From the NCBI RefSeq assembly GCF_016653315.1, contig NZ_NHSH01000048.1:63225-127224 (forward strand): 64,000 nt of DNA, in the 5' to 3' direction. Of the stretch, positions 1-6,412 are shown in pieces. Source of the stretch: Halochromatium roseum (lineage in GTDB: Bacteria; Pseudomonadota; Gammaproteobacteria; Chromatiales; Chromatiaceae). The notes beneath the pieces are model-generated. The model did not search any database and was not told where the DNA came from. It saw only the letters and a program-made list of their open reading frames with translations. The position numbers and the translations under genes are program-made. The stretch's first letter is position 1; every line of letters begins with the position of its first letter.

Positions 1-876
1 AAACTCTTGCTCGGTGTCGCCCCGCACCGCTGAGAGGAAGGCTTGCGGGAGGATCAGCGCGTCCTTGACGAGATCGGCCACGTCGAAGACGAGGCCACCG
101 CGGCGGGTCTTGCCGTGGAGCACGGCGAGGCCATGAGGAAGGCCGAGCACCCAGGTTGCGGTCGCTGCCAAGCCGTAAGCCAGGTAATTTCCGTGATCGA
201 GAAACTGGTTTGCGGCATCGGTCCCTTGGCCGCGCTTACCGCGGACGAAGTCGCCGTATTGGGTCGCTCGAGCGGCGAGCTTGTAGAGCTCCTTGGTCAG
301 CCGGGCTTCCTCCATCAGCAATGCGGTGTGGTCGGATGCGACCTGGATGTTCGAGCCAGAACGGCTGAGCAGTGCACTCAGAGCGCTCACATCAGGCTCA
401 AAGCCGGTTGATTGCAGATGGCGGGACGCGCTCCAGTGCGCTTGGATGTGTTGAAGTCGCTGCTGCTGGAACCGTTTGGCGGCCTCCAGCCGGAGGTCTT
501 CGTCGAACCAAAAACGCACCCATGCCTGCAGATACTCGGTCGATCGATATTCGCTCTGCGGGGAAAACCAAACGATGTCGGTATCGCGCTCGGTGGCCGT
601 AAACAACGGCGTCCCACCGCCACCGCAGAAACCCACCAAGACGCCGGCTTTAGCCAGTTCGCGCATGGCTGCCTGAGTGACCGACGTGCCGGTGCCAAGC
701 AGCACGCAGGTCGTGTTCGCAATGGGGATGTTCCAGTACAGCGAACGCCTGCCTTCGTCGGTAACGTACTCGACGCGGCCACCGTTGACCAAGACTCGGC
801 AATGCTCCAGATAGTAAAGATTAGCTCGCTTGGAGTGGAGGATGGTCTTGAGATCGCTTGCGTGAATGTCGTCCAT
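1..876 (-). CDS. cas1: CRISPR-associated endonuclease Cas1, type I-F (3' end cut by window edge)
   Basis: Cas1 is the metal-dependent integrase that, with Cas2 (fused to Cas3 in type I-F), inserts new spacers into a CRISPR array. Reverse-strand translation from the ATG at 874-876 stays open for 292 codons to base 1. It begins MDDIHASDLKTILHSKRANL and contains GFCGGGGTPLF and AVLHGKTRRGGLVFDVADL, closely matching the I-F (Ypest) Cas1 family as I know it. The residues matching the expected metal ligands are all present: E190, H254, D265 and D268. The family is about 325 residues long, so roughly 30 C-terminal residues lie outside. In I-F loci cas2-3, csy1-3, cas6f and the array normally follow cas1, so they would be expected left of the window. 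The gene upstream on the same strand is the helicase fusion at 997-3852, 120 bp away. Confidence 0.95.
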   Translation of the reverse strand, partial: MDDIHASDLKTILHSKRANLYYLEHCRVLVNGGRVEYVTDEGRRSLYWNIPIANTTCVLLGTGTSVTQAAMRELAKAGVLVGFCGGGGTPLFTATERDTDIVWFSPQSEYRSTEYLQAWVRFWFDEDLRLEAAKRFQQQRLQHIQAHWSASRHLQSTGFEPDVSALSALLSRSGSNIQVASDHTALLMEEARLTKELYKLAARATQYGDFVRGKRGQGTDAANQFLDHGNYLAYGLAATATWVLGLPHGLAVLHGKTRRGGLVFDVADLVKDALILPQAFLSAVRGDTEQEF

Positions 877-996: not shown

Positions 997-3852
997 TTAA
1001 AACAACGACTTCAAATCCGCCCCCTCATTGAGCTGCTGTAACATCCCACGCAGCTTTTCGATCGCCTTGTCACTGTACGCGTTGGGGTCCCAGACCTGTC
1101 CGCCCCAGTGGTAGACATCCTGTAACTGCGCGGCCAGCCGCTGCGGTTGTAACAGCTCGTAGATGCGCAGCCATTGGTCTTCGATGCGCAGCGCGAGTTG
1201 TGGGTTAAACAGATAATGCCCCTGCTTCCAGCGCTGGAACAGCTTGCGGTTGTAGGGCGCGTCGCGGTTGAGCTCGTTCTTGGACAGGATCGAGGAGATA
1301 TAAGGGCGCTTCTTGCGCCGCTCGGGTACGATGGATTCCGGAAAATGCTCGAGCACGGCGGCGAAATCGGGCGCTGAGAGCAGGTGGCGGCGATGCGCCC
1401 AGCGCTCGCCGAGCCCTTGATAGAACAGCACCATGGCAATGCTGAGCATCAGATATTCCATCAGCCGTTGATCGAGCTTGATCAGGCGGCCGTCGACCTG
1501 GATGTCGATGCTCGGGGGCGCCAGGCGCTCGAACACCGCCGGCAGCTTGGTGCGCGCGAAGCGTTCATCGGCGCAGGCGCGGTCGAGGGCGATCTGAAAG
1601 GCGTTCAGGCCATTGCCGTCGACCAGACTGGTGTCGGCGTCGCGGTCGAGCAGCGCCTCGATCAGCTCGGCATTGCCGGTGCGGCTGGCGATCATCAACG
1701 GCGTCTGGCCGAAGACGTTGCGGAAGTCGACGCCGTATTGGTCGACCTCGCGCAGCACGCCGGTGGCATGCTTGAGGCCGTAGTTGAAGAAGTGTTTCTT
1801 CTCCAGCATCGACAGCGCCTTGTCCGGCTGCTTGGCGGCCTTGAGGCCCTGCTGGATCAGCCGGTTCATCAGGCGTTGGTCGCGGTAGACCAGCGCATAC
1901 TCCATCAGCGCGATGCCGGCCTTCTTCTCGCCTTGGTCGAGCGCCTTCTGCTCCAGTTCGGTGAGCGCGTCACCACGCAGCACGGTCCAGGGCACCTGGC
2001 GTTGCTTGAGGATCTGCTCGCGGATGTCGGCGGCCTGCTCGTCCTTGCCCTGCAGCTCGAGGCGATGGGCCTCTTTGCGCCATTCCTCCAGGCTCGAGGT
2101 CTGCTCTTCGACATCGTCGACGCCTTCGTGGACCTCCGTCAGCCCCAGCAGGGCGAGCAGGTGCTGTTTGGGTCGCGGCTCGATCAGATACAGGTTCTTG
2201 ACCGCGCGGGTCACCGCCACGTACAGCGCGTTGATGTAGAACTTATAGATCTCCAGCGATTTGTCGGTCTTGTCGCGGCTGCGGGCATAGCGCAGCTCGC
2301 CCTGCAGATCGGCCTCGCTGAGCTGACCGGCGATGTCGCGAAAGCGCTTTTCCTCGCTGGAGAGGAAGCCGTAGAGCAGCACATTCTCGTATTCCAGGCC
2401 CTTGGCCTCGTGGATCGAGAACACCAAGGGGGTGCGAAAATGCTTGCGCACCTCGGCCTTTTGCTCCGGGTGCAGCACCAGGATGGCGAAGCGCGCCGAG
2501 GCGGCGGTGCGCCGGTCGAGGTCGCGCTTGATCTGCTCGCTATCCTGCAACAGCCCGACACGGCCGCGCGCCGGGCCGCGGCTGCGCACCAGATAGTTGC
2601 TCTCCTTGTCGACCGAGCCGAAGCGGGCGTGCTTGATGTGCAACAAGCGGTTGGCGATCTCGGTGACCTGGGGCGAGTTGCGGAAGTTGGCGTTGAGGAT
2701 GCGGATCAGCTCGGTGCCAGTCGCCGTTTTGGACGCATCGGCCTGCTCGCGCCAGAACAGCGTCTTGACCTTGGACCAGGAGAAGAAGTTGGGGTGGACG
2801 ATCTGGTTCGAGTCGCCGCAGAGCAGGAAGCCGCTGCTGTCGCGCAGCGCGCGCAGGATCAGCAGCAGCTGCACATTGGTCAGGTCCTGCACCTCGTCGA
2901 CGACGACGAAGTCATAGCGCGGCCGTACCCGCTCGAGCCAGGCGTGGCTGACCAGATTGGTGTCGAACCAGCCCTCCTCATCGAGGAAGCGCCGATACTT
3001 CTCGAACAGATCATAGACGCCGGCGCGGGTCTCGGGCGGGTAGATCGACTGCTTCACGCCGAGGCCGAGATAGGCCTCGCGGCTGAGGTAGGCGGACTCG
3101 GGGTCGGTGCCGGTGATGGCGCCTTGAAACTCCTCGAACAGCTGGTGGCTGTCTTTCAGATCCTTGGGCAAGCGCTGGCGCCCGGCCCAGCCGGCGAAGA
3201 TGCGCGGCGTGATCTCCTTGCCCTCCGGCACCTGGATGCTCTCCAGATACTCGCGAAACGAGAGGAAGTCGACCTGCTGATCGTCGTTGGACCAACCGTT
3301 GGCGTAGTACAGCTCGCGGGCGTTTTGGACGAGGAAGGCCGAGCGCGTCACATAGAGGATGTCGCCGCTGGCATCCTTCATCTTCTCCAGCGTCAGCGCG
3401 GTCTTGCCGCTGCCGGCGGAGCCGATGATCACCAGCGGCGGTGGCTGCTGGTAGACCTGCTCTTGGTCGTCGTCGAAGGACAGCACCTTATCGAGCAGAT
3501 GGAAGCGCGGCAGGCTCGGATTCAGGTACGGCAGCTCGGGCGCCTCATCGGCGGCGTCCGCGGTGACGGCGGGGATGCGCTCCTCATCGATCTGCACGCC
3601 ACGGGCGAGAAAGCGCGATTTGTCGTAGGCGTGCTGCGGGATGTATTCCAACAGCAGCGCACAGCGCTCGCCCTCATGGCGATAGAGGGCGAACAGCAGG
3701 CGATTGCTGCGATCGAGCCGCGCGCGATAGAGGTTGTCGCCGATCTTCTTGACGTCGGCGGAGCGGAAGTCGTCGGCGCTGAGGTAGGCGACGAGCTTGT
3801 CGTAGCCGGGGATGGCGCTGGTGTTCAGGCCACGGTAGGTGAGAATCTTCAT
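997..3852 (-). CDS. RelE/ParE-like domain - superfamily 1 (UvrD-like) helicase - ankyrin-like fusion protein
   Basis: This 951-residue protein is predicted to be an ATP-dependent DNA helicase or translocase. Residues about 1-85 resemble a RelE/ParE-type toxin fold (YRARLDRSNRLLFALYRHEG, then a hydrophobic strand and HAYDKSRF). The SF1 core follows: Walker A GSAGSGKT at 144-151, Walker B DEVQD at 319-323, GDSNQ at 346-350, NFR at 389-391, a HEAKGLEYENVLLYG motif V, and a YVAVTRAVKNLYLIE motif VI around residue 550. A helical region and one or two ankyrin-like units (FGQTPLMIASRTGNAELIEALL, roughly 715-770) follow, then a C-terminal region I do not recognise. It starts at ATG 3852. It lies directly upstream of I-F cas1 on the same strand, so a defence role is possible but is inference. 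A repair or nucleic-acid-processing role is the alternative. The domain order is seen; the RelE and ankyrin labels are by eye. Confidence 0.8.
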   Translation of the reverse strand: MKILTYRGLNTSAIPGYDKLVAYLSADDFRSADVKKIGDNLYRARLDRSNRLLFALYRHEGERCALLLEYIPQHAYDKSRFLARGVQIDEERIPAVTADAADEAPELPYLNPSLPRFHLLDKVLSFDDDQEQVYQQPPPLVIIGSAGSGKTALTLEKMKDASGDILYVTRSAFLVQNARELYYANGWSNDDQQVDFLSFREYLESIQVPEGKEITPRIFAGWAGRQRLPKDLKDSHQLFEEFQGAITGTDPESAYLSREAYLGLGVKQSIYPPETRAGVYDLFEKYRRFLDEEGWFDTNLVSHAWLERVRPRYDFVVVDEVQDLTNVQLLLILRALRDSSGFLLCGDSNQIVHPNFFSWSKVKTLFWREQADASKTATGTELIRILNANFRNSPQVTEIANRLLHIKHARFGSVDKESNYLVRSRGPARGRVGLLQDSEQIKRDLDRRTAASARFAILVLHPEQKAEVRKHFRTPLVFSIHEAKGLEYENVLLYGFLSSEEKRFRDIAGQLSEADLQGELRYARSRDKTDKSLEIYKFYINALYVAVTRAVKNLYLIEPRPKQHLLALLGLTEVHEGVDDVEEQTSSLEEWRKEAHRLELQGKDEQAADIREQILKQRQVPWTVLRGDALTELEQKALDQGEKKAGIALMEYALVYRDQRLMNRLIQQGLKAAKQPDKALSMLEKKHFFNYGLKHATGVLREVDQYGVDFRNVFGQTPLMIASRTGNAELIEALLDRDADTSLVDGNGLNAFQIALDRACADERFARTKLPAVFERLAPPSIDIQVDGRLIKLDQRLMEYLMLSIAMVLFYQGLGERWAHRRHLLSAPDFAAVLEHFPESIVPERRKKRPYISSILSKNELNRDAPYNRKLFQRWKQGHYLFNPQLALRIEDQWLRIYELLQPQRLAAQLQDVYHWGGQVWDPNAYSDKAIEKLRGMLQQLNEGADLKSLF

Positions 3853-4022: not shown

Positions 4023-5480
4023 TCAGTCGCCACCGGCCCCACCAGTGCCGCCCACGGTCAGCGCATCGACCCGCAGCGTCGGCTGGCCAACCCCAACCGG
4101 CACGCTCTGGCCATCCTTGCCGCAAGTGCCAACACCTTCATCGAGCTTGAGGTCGTTGCCGACCATGCTGACGCGGGTCAGTACATCGGGGCCATTGCCA
4201 ATCAGGGTTGCGCCTTTGACCGGGCGACCGATCTTGCCGTTCTCGATCAGGTAGGCCTCGCTGGCGGAGAAGGTGAACTTGCCGGAGGTGATATCGACCT
4301 GGCCGCCGCCGAAGTTGGCCGCGTAGAGTCCCTTCTCGACCGAGGCGATGATCTCGCCGGGATCATGGTTGCCGGCCAGCATGTAGGTGTTGGTCATGCG
4401 CGGCATCGGCAGATGGGCGTAGGATTCTCGGCGGCCGTTGCCGGTCGGCGCCATGCCCATCAGGCGGGCGTTGAGCCGGTCTTGCATGTAGCCGACTAGC
4501 ACGCCGTCTTCGATCAGCGTGGTGCAGTGGGTCGGTGTGCCTTCGTCGTCGATGTTCAGCGAGCCGCGTCGACCGGGCAGGGTGCCGTCGTCGACGACGG
4601 TGACGCCCTTGGCGGCGACACGTTGATTGAGGCGGCCGCTGAACGCCGAGGTGCCCTTGCGGTTGAAGTCGCCCTCGAGCCCATGGCCGACCGCCTCATG
4701 CAGTAGCACGCCGGGCCAACCGGCGCCGAGTACCACGGTCATGGTGCCGGCGGGGGCAGGGCCGGCCTCCAGGTTGATCAACGCTTGGCGCACCGCCTCG
4801 CGGGCGAAGCCGAGCGCGCGATCCTCGGCCAGCATCCAGCCCAGATCCAGGCGCGCGCCACCGCCGCTATGGGCCTGCTCGCGGCGGCCGTTTTCTTCGA
4901 CTACGGCGACCACGTTGAGGCGGATCAGTGGGCGGACATCGGCGCTCAGCCGGCCATCATCGGAGATGACGAGGATGGTGTCTTGCACGGCGACTAGGCT
5001 GGTCATGACCTCCTTTACGCGCGAGTCGATGCGGCGCGCCTCGGCGTCGACCCGATGCAGCAGCTCGAGCTTGGCCGCATCATCGAGACTCTCGATCGGG
5101 TTCATCGGCTCGTACAGCCGTTGCCTTGCCGGCATGCCGCTGCCGATGCTAACCGGCGCTGCACCACCGCCCCGGGCGATGGCGCGTGCGGCATCGGCGG
5201 CCTTGGTCAGGGCTGCGATCTCGAGTTCGTCGGAGTAGGCGAAGCCGGTCTTCTCGCCGCTGATGGCGCGCAGACCGGCGCCTTGCTCGATGTTGAAGCT
5301 GCCGTCTTTGACGATGCCGTCCTCGAGCATCCAGGATTGTAGCCGGCTGCTTTGAAAGTAGACGTCGGCGGCGTCGATCGCGGGGCTGCGGAGCGCGCCG
5401 ATCAGGCGATCGAGGTCGCTGTCGCCAAGGCCGAAGGGCGCGAGGATGCTCTGGCGGGCGATGTCGATGGAGTCGGTCAT
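4023..5480 (-). CDS. tldD: Metalloprotease TldD
   Basis: TldD is the zinc-protease half of the TldD/TldE (PmbA) pair, which matures microcin-type peptides and degrades CcdA in E. coli. No tldE/pmbA is in the window. From the ATG at 5480 ([10 protein letters not shown]) the protein is 485 residues, close to E. coli TldD (about 481). The frame remains open upstream to 5834, but that part lacks family character. The HExxxH zinc motif ([10 protein letters not shown]261-E262-H266) and the conserved late Cys (GTCGKDGQ, C453) are visible. It follows the nitrilase gene on the same strand with a gap of about 100 bp, a common arrangement downstream of yhdP in gammaproteobacteria. Confidence 0.95.
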
Positions 5481-5584: not shown

Positions 5585-6412
5585 TCAGCGGCACTTGAGC
5601 CGCCGATGGTCGAGTACAGGGAAGGTGCGGCGGATCGAGGCCTGACGGTCGCGGTCGAGCGCGCAGCAGATTTGCCCGACGCCGCGCTCGATCTGTGCCA
5701 GCACATTGCCCCAGGGATCGACGATCATGCTGTGACCATGGGTCTCGCGGCCGCTGAGGTGGAAGCCGCCCTGTGCGGCTGCGACCACATAGGCCAGGTT
5801 CTCGATCGCGCGCGCGCGGATCAAGGTCTCCCAATGCGCCTTGCCGGTCAGCGCGGTGAAGGCGGCGGGAATCGCGAGGATCTCGAGGCCGCTATCGAGC
5901 ATCCGGCGGGCGGCCTCCGGGAAGCGCAGATCGTAGCAGACCAGCACGCCGAGGCGGCCAAAGGGCGTGTCGACCACGGGGCTTTGATCACCAGATTCGA
6001 TCGTCGCCGACTCCTGGTAACGCTCATTGGCGTCGGGCAGTACGACGTCAAACAGGTGCATCTTGTCGCAGCGTGCCACCCGATCGCCATGGGCGTTATA
6101 GATCAAGGTCGCTGAGCGCACTCGCGCAGGATTATTGGCGCGCAATGGGATGGTGCCGCCGACGATCCAGACGCCATAGCGGAGCGCGGTCTTGGCCAAG
6201 AAGTCCTGCAGCTGGCCGCTGCCATCGGACTCGACCAACGAGAGCATGTCGCGATCCTGCTTGCCCATGAAGGCAAAATTCTCCGGTAGCACCACTAAGC
6301 CCGCGCCGGCCTCGGCGGCACGGCCGATGAGGCGTTCGGCTTCGATGAGATTAGCGGTTGTGTTTGGGCCGGAGGCCATCTGCACGGCCGCGAGCTTGGA
6401 GATATCGGTCAT
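5585..6412 (-). CDS. Carbon-nitrogen hydrolase (nitrilase superfamily, Nit1/YbeM-like amidase)
   Basis: This 275-residue cytosolic enzyme has the nitrilase catalytic triad: Glu44 ([10 protein letters not shown]), Lys117 (CDKMHLFDV) and Cys159 ([10 protein letters not shown]). The closest family by motif is Nit1, the deaminated-glutathione amidase (omega-amidase-like) that removes a metabolite-damage product. The exact substrate cannot be read from sequence. It starts at ATG 6412 ([12 protein letters not shown]). It lies between yhdP and tldD on the same strand, a conserved context in gammaproteobacteria. An unusual N- or C-terminal domain was not seen. Confidence 0.9.

What the first reader, a model, noticed from the sequence alone, without database searches (positions are those of the whole stretch)
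997..3852. RelE-like / SF1 helicase / ankyrin fusion directly upstream of a type I-F cas1
Seen: a 951-residue minus-strand protein with a RelE/ParE-like first ~85 residues, complete UvrD-class helicase motifs, an ankyrin-like segment and an unrecognised C-terminus, 120 bp upstream of I-F cas1 on the same strand. Known: RelE-type domains cut RNA or poison gyrase, and helicases joined to effector domains occur in several anti-phage systems. Inference: this may be a defence or adaptation-linked enzyme in the CRISPR locus, or a toxin-helicase system not yet described. The link to CRISPR could be chance.
Basis: partly seen in the sequence, partly recalled or inferred. Interest (0 to 1): 0.62.

Follow-up and report, generated by a model that had tools for sequence, protein, structure and literature searches.

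The report
Solitary RelE toxin–helicase fusion gene
A purple sulphur bacterium carries a single-gene fusion of a toxin-like RNA-cutting domain to a helicase motor; the gene moves around bacterial genomes on its own, so its position next to CRISPR genes is chance, and it looks like an unnamed, widespread antitoxin-free effector.

Summary
Window 997-3852(-) encodes a 951-residue protein: RelE-like domain (1-94), complete UvrD-type SF1 helicase (about 117-590), helical region, two ankyrin repeats (about 707-762) and a confident but unnamed C-terminal fold. It ends 120 bp before a genuine type I-F cas1.

The RelE call, invisible to Pfam in this protein, is confirmed by AlphaFold2 (pLDDT 91.6): all 50 best PDB alignments are YoeB/HigB/RelE/ParE/YafQ toxins or toxin-domain proteins such as the ribosome-dependent Cami1. 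K36, R43, R51, E69, H74 and Y76 are invariant in 72 relatives; K36, R51 and H74 also in fusobacterial, cyanobacterial and clostridial relatives of the same architecture.

The CRISPR link is chance: six of eight genomes of the genus carry the gene, only two of them with an intact I-F cas1. Across Chromatiaceae the gene sits in unrelated places (4 of 66 locus pairs share a neighbour, against 33 of 45 for tldD), with no conserved partner or antitoxin. Relatives: at least 571 loci, also Shigella plasmids; none found in phages.

Most likely: a self-contained, motor-gated RelE-type RNase of the accessory genome. CoCoNuT CnuH is the nearest precedent. Function is inferred; defence-island enrichment was not shown.

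The parts
997..3852 (-). RelE-like / SF1 helicase / ankyrin protein, 951 aa
   Evidence: ORF; relatives in at least 571 stretches of genome contigs
3571..3852 (-). residues 1-94, RelE/YoeB-fold domain; invariant K36 (3745-3747), R43 (3724-3726), R51 (3700-3702), E69 (3646-3648), H74 (3631-3633), Y76 (3625-3627)
   Evidence: AF2 model pLDDT 91.6; all 50 listed VIA-align matches are RelE-superfamily toxins or toxin-domain proteins, best Z 8.6; invariance
2083..3504 (-). residues 117-590, UvrD-type SF1 helicase core: motif I GSAGSGKT (144-151), II DEVQD (319-323), III GDSNQ (346-350), IV NFRN (389-392), V EAKGLE (482-487), VI YVAVTRA (544-550)
   Evidence: Pfam; motifs invariant in 22 relatives and in distant relatives
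1735..2082 (-). residues 591-706, all-helical TPR-like region starting with the conserved WR.EA..LELQGK motif
   Evidence: AF2 secondary structure, conservation
1567..1734 (-). residues 707-762, two ankyrin repeats
   Evidence: PF13857/PF00023; AF2 and Foldseek
1138..1566 (-). residues 763-905, confident C-terminal fold with conserved RRKK.YISSILSKNE...NRKLF.R...G.Y..NP block (845-884), helix plus beta-hairpin resembling a winged helix (inference)
   Evidence: AF2, conservation
1..876 (-). context, not part: type I-F cas1, cut by the window edge; first gene of a complete I-F operon (cas1, cas2-3, csy1-4, array with 87 exact repeats) beyond the window
4023..5477 (-). context, not part: tldD of a housekeeping block (tldD, nitrilase, yhdP, rng, maf, rlmH), 170 bp upstream
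   Evidence: names from own knowledge of the families; tldD found in 14 of 15 relatives

Best explanation
One gene encodes a self-contained effector: a RelE/YoeB-type ribonuclease domain tethered to an ATP-driven UvrD-type SF1 translocase, with TPR-like, ankyrin and winged-helix-like parts as a probable sensor/recruitment module. Shown here: fold of the N-terminus, conserved catalytic-type residues, intact motor motifs, no antitoxin gene, accessory and relocating gene. Inferred: with no antitoxin, the nuclease is held in check in cis by the rest of the protein; when the motor and C-terminal parts engage a triggering nucleic acid (invading replicon, phage RNA/DNA or a stalled complex), the RelE domain is released or delivered to the ribosomal A site, cuts mRNA and stops growth. 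The place next to type I-F cas1 is a chance insertion site, not a CRISPR function.
For: RelE fold: AF2 pLDDT 91.6, strand/helix order as in RelE; Foldseek top hits mostly YoeB/ParE, HigB and YafQ toxins; every one of the 50 listed VIA alignments is a RelE-superfamily toxin or toxin-domain protein, including the ribosome-bound CARF-RelE protein Cami1, Z 8.2. A distant relative with the same architecture matches Pfam YoeB_toxin weakly at the same place, E 0.023. Invariant K36/R43/R51/E69/H74/Y76 in 72 relatives; K36, R51, H74 kept across proteobacterial, fusobacterial, cyanobacterial and clostridial relatives. A short hhalign match places R51 on the conserved YoeB arginine (not significant by itself). 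Helicase motifs all intact. No conserved small ORF in 500-bp flanks and no conserved partner. Accessory and relocating: 15 of 58 genomes of the family have it; 4 of 66 locus pairs share a neighbour against 33 of 45 for tldD; on plasmids of several phyla; Thiorhodovibrio and Nitrosomonas nest within Methylococcales.
Against: No sequence-significant match of this protein to any RelE/ParE family. Foldseek E-values are weak (best 5e-3) and VIA Z just above 8. No clear defence-gene enrichment: neighbour scans were inconclusive. None in phages or viral contigs. The gene tree mostly follows orders, so it is not a fast-travelling gene. Nuclease activity and gating were not testable.
Confidence: 0.45

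Rival explanations
1. Translation or RNA surveillance enzyme: the RelE-like domain enters the A site of stalled ribosomes or binds mRNA, cuts it, and the motor clears the mRNA or associated complex; a stress-quality-control factor, not a defence toxin.
For: RelE-type domains work at the A site (PMC11980606); the nearest precedent, CnuH, joins SmpB-like and RelE-like domains to a helicase of the UPF1 RNA-surveillance clade (PMC11090510); gene tree partly vertical.
Against: Patchy presence and no fixed site; UvrD-type motors are best known on DNA (own knowledge); plasmid carriage.
Confidence: 0.22
2. The RelE-like domain has lost catalysis and is an RNA/ribosome- or protein-binding adaptor of a helicase.
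For: No sequence-level kinship with active toxins; domain found in a large multidomain protein without antitoxin.
Against: Catalytic-type K, R and H are the most conserved positions of the domain across phyla; a pure adaptor would have less need of them.
Confidence: 0.18
3. Replicon-conflict or plasmid-maintenance protein acting on DNA (anti-plasmid helicase or ParE-like gyrase inhibitor).
For: Carried by plasmids of several genera, near partition genes on two; UvrD-type motor.
Against: The K/R/H set is that of the RNase branch (own knowledge of the families); most copies found in species genomes are on large chromosomal contigs or unassigned contigs.
Confidence: 0.1
4. Accessory factor of the adjacent type I-F CRISPR-Cas system.
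For: 120 bp upstream of cas1 on the same strand, in two sister genomes.
Against: Of six genus genomes with the gene, only two have an intact I-F cas1; no other fetched relative locus has it; L033 has the same tldD neighbour but other genes downstream.
Confidence: 0.03

Closest known systems
CoCoNuT CnuH (type II and III-A; PMC11090510)
   Same: SF1 helicase with a RelE/colicin-like domain ahead of the motor, recognised only by structure
   Different: CnuH is UPF1-like, has an N-terminal SmpB-like OB fold and a coiled-coil insertion, and works with CnuB/CnuC/CnuE; this protein is UvrD-like, begins with the RelE domain, has ankyrin and winged-helix-like parts, and stands alone
RelE/YoeB/HigB toxins
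   Same: fold; conserved Arg at the RLVY-type strand; C-terminal His as in YoeB (residue roles from own knowledge)
   Different: no antitoxin partner, one domain of a 951-residue protein, no significant sequence similarity
Cami1 (CARF-RelE; PDB 8phj)
   Same: RelE-fold effector fused to a regulatory module in one chain (VIA Z 8.2)
   Different: Cami1 is gated by cyclic tetra-adenylate through CARF (entry title and own knowledge); here the fused part is an ATP-driven motor
Gabija GajB and UvrD/Rep/PcrA helicases
   Same: UvrD-class motor (PADLOC GajB E 1.3e-11, partial; Pfam UvrD)
   Different: no GajA partner; extra RelE, ankyrin and C-terminal parts; motif spacing suggests no full 2B subdomain (inference)
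Multidomain BECR-fold toxins (survey PMC11980606)
   Same: RelE-superfamily domain within a larger protein
   Different: a search of that paper's text finds no helicase or ankyrin; it states that many multidomain proteins without an identifiable antitoxin were left out

Membership tests
RelE/ParE (BECR) toxin superfamily | RelE fold | tested here: met
   AF2 pLDDT 91.6; the 50 VIA rows are all RelE-superfamily toxins or toxin-domain proteins, YoeB/ParE first in Foldseek
RelE/ParE (BECR) toxin superfamily | sequence match to a curated family | tested here: inconclusive
   none for this protein; YoeB_toxin E 0.023, below cut-off, in distant relative P0003
RelE/ParE (BECR) toxin superfamily | conserved catalytic-type basic residues and His/Tyr | tested here: met
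   K36, R43, R51, E69, H74, Y76 invariant in 72; K36, R51, H74 across phyla. Exact correspondence to toxin catalytic residues not proven
Type II toxin-antitoxin module | adjacent antitoxin gene | tested here: not met
   no conserved small ORF in 500-bp flanks, no conserved neighbour
RelE-type mRNA interferase | ribosome-dependent mRNA cleavage | not testable with these tools
   needs bench assay
UvrD-like SF1 helicase | motifs I-VI | tested here: met
   Pfam PF00580/PF13361; motifs invariant
UvrD-like SF1 helicase | unwinding or translocation activity | not testable with these tools
   needs bench assay
CoCoNuT CnuH | UPF1-like helicase clade | tested here: not met
   best Pfam matches are UvrD families; no AAA_11/AAA_12 match at E up to 1
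CoCoNuT CnuH | SmpB-like OB fold before the RelE-like domain | tested here: not met
   RelE fold begins at residue 1
CoCoNuT CnuH | operon with CnuB/CnuC and CnuE | tested here: not met
   no neighbour family is conserved
Type I-F CRISPR accessory gene | recurrent linkage to I-F cas genes | tested here: not met
   intact I-F cas1 in 2 of 6 genus genomes with the gene; in no other fetched relative locus
Gabija | GajA nuclease partner | tested here: not met
   no conserved neighbour

The most novel reading that the evidence does not exclude
A cross-phylum class of single-gene, antitoxin-free immune or stress effectors in which a UvrD-type motor directly gates a ribosome-dependent RelE nuclease, converting nucleic-acid translocation into translation shut-off, with swappable C-terminal sensor parts (ankyrin/winged-helix, TPR).
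Probability: 0.3. Interest if true: 0.72.

Novelty: new variant of a known kind. Interest (0 to 1): 0.5.

Why it matters
RelE toxins are normally restrained by a separate antitoxin. A widespread single-chain version tied to a helicase would show another way to hold and release such a toxin, and would give a function to a gene found in purple sulphur bacteria, methanotrophs, nitrifiers and many Shigella large plasmids, where it is annotated only as a UvrD, AAA, ankyrin or hypothetical protein.

Tried and rejected
CRISPR association: rejected. Antitoxin search in flanks: nothing conserved. Conserved operon partner: none overall; an SNF2/SWIM helicase gene lies directly downstream on the same strand in one clade (L057, L058, L060) and in L112 only. 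Defence-island test: 107 nearest genes hit 146 PADLOC models, 100 after removing seven large genes including the SNF2 ones hit 92, 105 genes five to nine positions away hit 10; the excess is inflated because single kinases and helicases match dozens of models, and proteins with any hit could not be counted, so inconclusive. Profile comparison with YoeB: not significant. PDB profile search of the N-terminus: only BurrH repeats, an artefact. C-terminal fold search: only generic ankyrin matches, the winged-helix-like part untested. Phages and viral contigs: none (the viral scan used only two short patterns). Eukaryotic TRANK1 came to mind as an SF1/ankyrin analogue; literature searches gave nothing useful and it was not tested. 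Searches for papers naming this architecture found none.

Full report
What is there. Window 997-3852 on the minus strand is one open frame of 951 codons starting with ATG. Pfam finds a UvrD-type SF1 helicase and ankyrin repeats. Upstream, 170 bp away, is tldD in a housekeeping block; downstream, after 120 bp, is a type I-F cas1, cut by the window edge. In the full contig cas1 starts a complete I-F operon (Cas1f, Cas2-3, Csy1-4, all far above NCBIfam cut-offs) followed by an array with 87 exact 28-nt repeats.

The N-terminal domain. No Pfam model or credible PDB sequence matches residues 1-94, even with 74 relatives (the two weak PDB hits are repeat artefacts). AlphaFold2 with 72 rows gives pLDDT 91.6 and the order strand, helix, four strands, short helix. 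Foldseek ranks YoeB/ParE, HigB and YafQ toxins among its first hits. In the VIA second look all 50 listed entries are RelE-superfamily toxins or proteins with such a domain, best Z 8.6 over 73 residues at 2.4 A (7v6w, S. aureus YoeB); Cami1, a ribosome-bound CARF-RelE protein, scores 8.2. The values are middling, but the list is uniform. Independent support: a cyanobacterial relative of the same layout (P0003) matches Pfam YoeB_toxin at residues 21-72, E 0.023.

Residues. K36, R43, R51, E69, H74 and Y76 are invariant among 72 relatives. When proteins from Cetobacterium, Euhalothece and Paraclostridium, all of which begin with a similar segment, are added, K36, R51 and H74 remain invariant together with the helicase motifs. 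A short profile match sets R51 on the arginine of the YoeB RLVY strand, consistent but not significant. From own knowledge of RelE, YoeB and HigB, basic residues, that arginine and a C-terminal His or Tyr form the catalytic set, and ParE gyrase inhibitors lack it. So RNase activity is likelier than gyrase inhibition, by inference.

The rest of the protein. SF1 motifs I-VI are invariant. Residues 590-951 fold with pLDDT 93.5: helices, two ankyrin repeats, then helices and beta-hairpins with a conserved block at about 845-894. The last 45 residues are not conserved. The winged-helix reading is inference; fold searches saw only the ankyrins.

Distribution. At least 571 stretches in one-per-species genomes encode a relative, the best 80 nearly all matching from residue 1. 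Within the family 15 of 58 genomes carry the full gene; in an even sample of the phylum 10 of 398. Plasmids: 139 records, mostly Shigella and E. coli large plasmids at about 48% identity over residues 1-899, plus Methylosinus, Piscirickettsia, Polymorphobacter and others. No phage record or viral contig.

CRISPR linkage. Of eight genomes of the genus, six have the gene and two an intact I-F cas1, with a fragment in a third. Among fetched relative loci the cas1 appears only in the window species and its 97% sister. L033, with the same tldD neighbour, has other genes downstream. Linkage is therefore one local event.

Mobility. Gene neighbours were compared within Chromatiaceae, with tldD in the same genomes as control: 33 of 45 tldD pairs share a neighbour, 4 of 66 for this gene; leaving out the genomes where the two genes adjoin, 19 of 21 against 2 of 36. 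The gene tree mostly follows orders but puts Thiorhodovibrio and Nitrosomonas inside Methylococcales. So it is an accessory gene that changes place, and sometimes host, without a fixed partner or antitoxin.

Mechanism. A RelE-type nuclease without antitoxin in a conserved single chain suggests control in cis. The attached ATPase and C-terminal parts are the natural gate. Whether the trigger is invading nucleic acid or a stalled ribosome cannot be told. Defence association was tested and is inconclusive.

Known relatives. CoCoNuT CnuH already joins a RelE-like domain to an SF1 helicase (PMC11090510), which lowers the novelty; it differs in helicase clade, extra OB fold and obligatory partners. 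The 2025 survey of multidomain RelE/ParE toxins does not mention helicases and states that antitoxin-less multidomain proteins were left out (PMC11980606). No paper naming this architecture was found, within an open-access library only.

Noticed in passing
L114:12225-14855 and L113:33-1583 (contig G000:C48, about 45-50 kb, outside the window): A Cas3 (PRK09694-like) and a weak, below-cut-off Cse1/CasA lie just before the I-F array, apparently without the other type I-E genes: a possible remnant or partial operon.
   Followed up: partly
L113:2190-7386: Large type I-F array with 87 exact repeats; one spacer seems to occur twice (the frame LAEAALEHPQH appears near 4200 and near 6000).
   Followed up: no
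L057:12714-16773, L058:12783-16596, L060:3516-7270, L112:12579-16421: SNF2 helicase gene with a SWIM-type partner (fused in L112) directly downstream of the RelE-helicase gene on the same strand.
   Followed up: partly
L094:12214-12770 and L095:15032-15618: A YefM/YoeB-like gene pair a few genes from the RelE-helicase gene in two Nitrosomonas genomes.
   Followed up: no
plasmid hits H1-H106: A 48%-identical relative is present on many Shigella large plasmids and some E. coli plasmids, annotated as UvrD, ankyrin or hypothetical; a few copies match in several pieces and may be broken.
   Followed up: no
L146 (G292:C21:4926-7742): A relative with one in-frame TAG.
   Followed up: no
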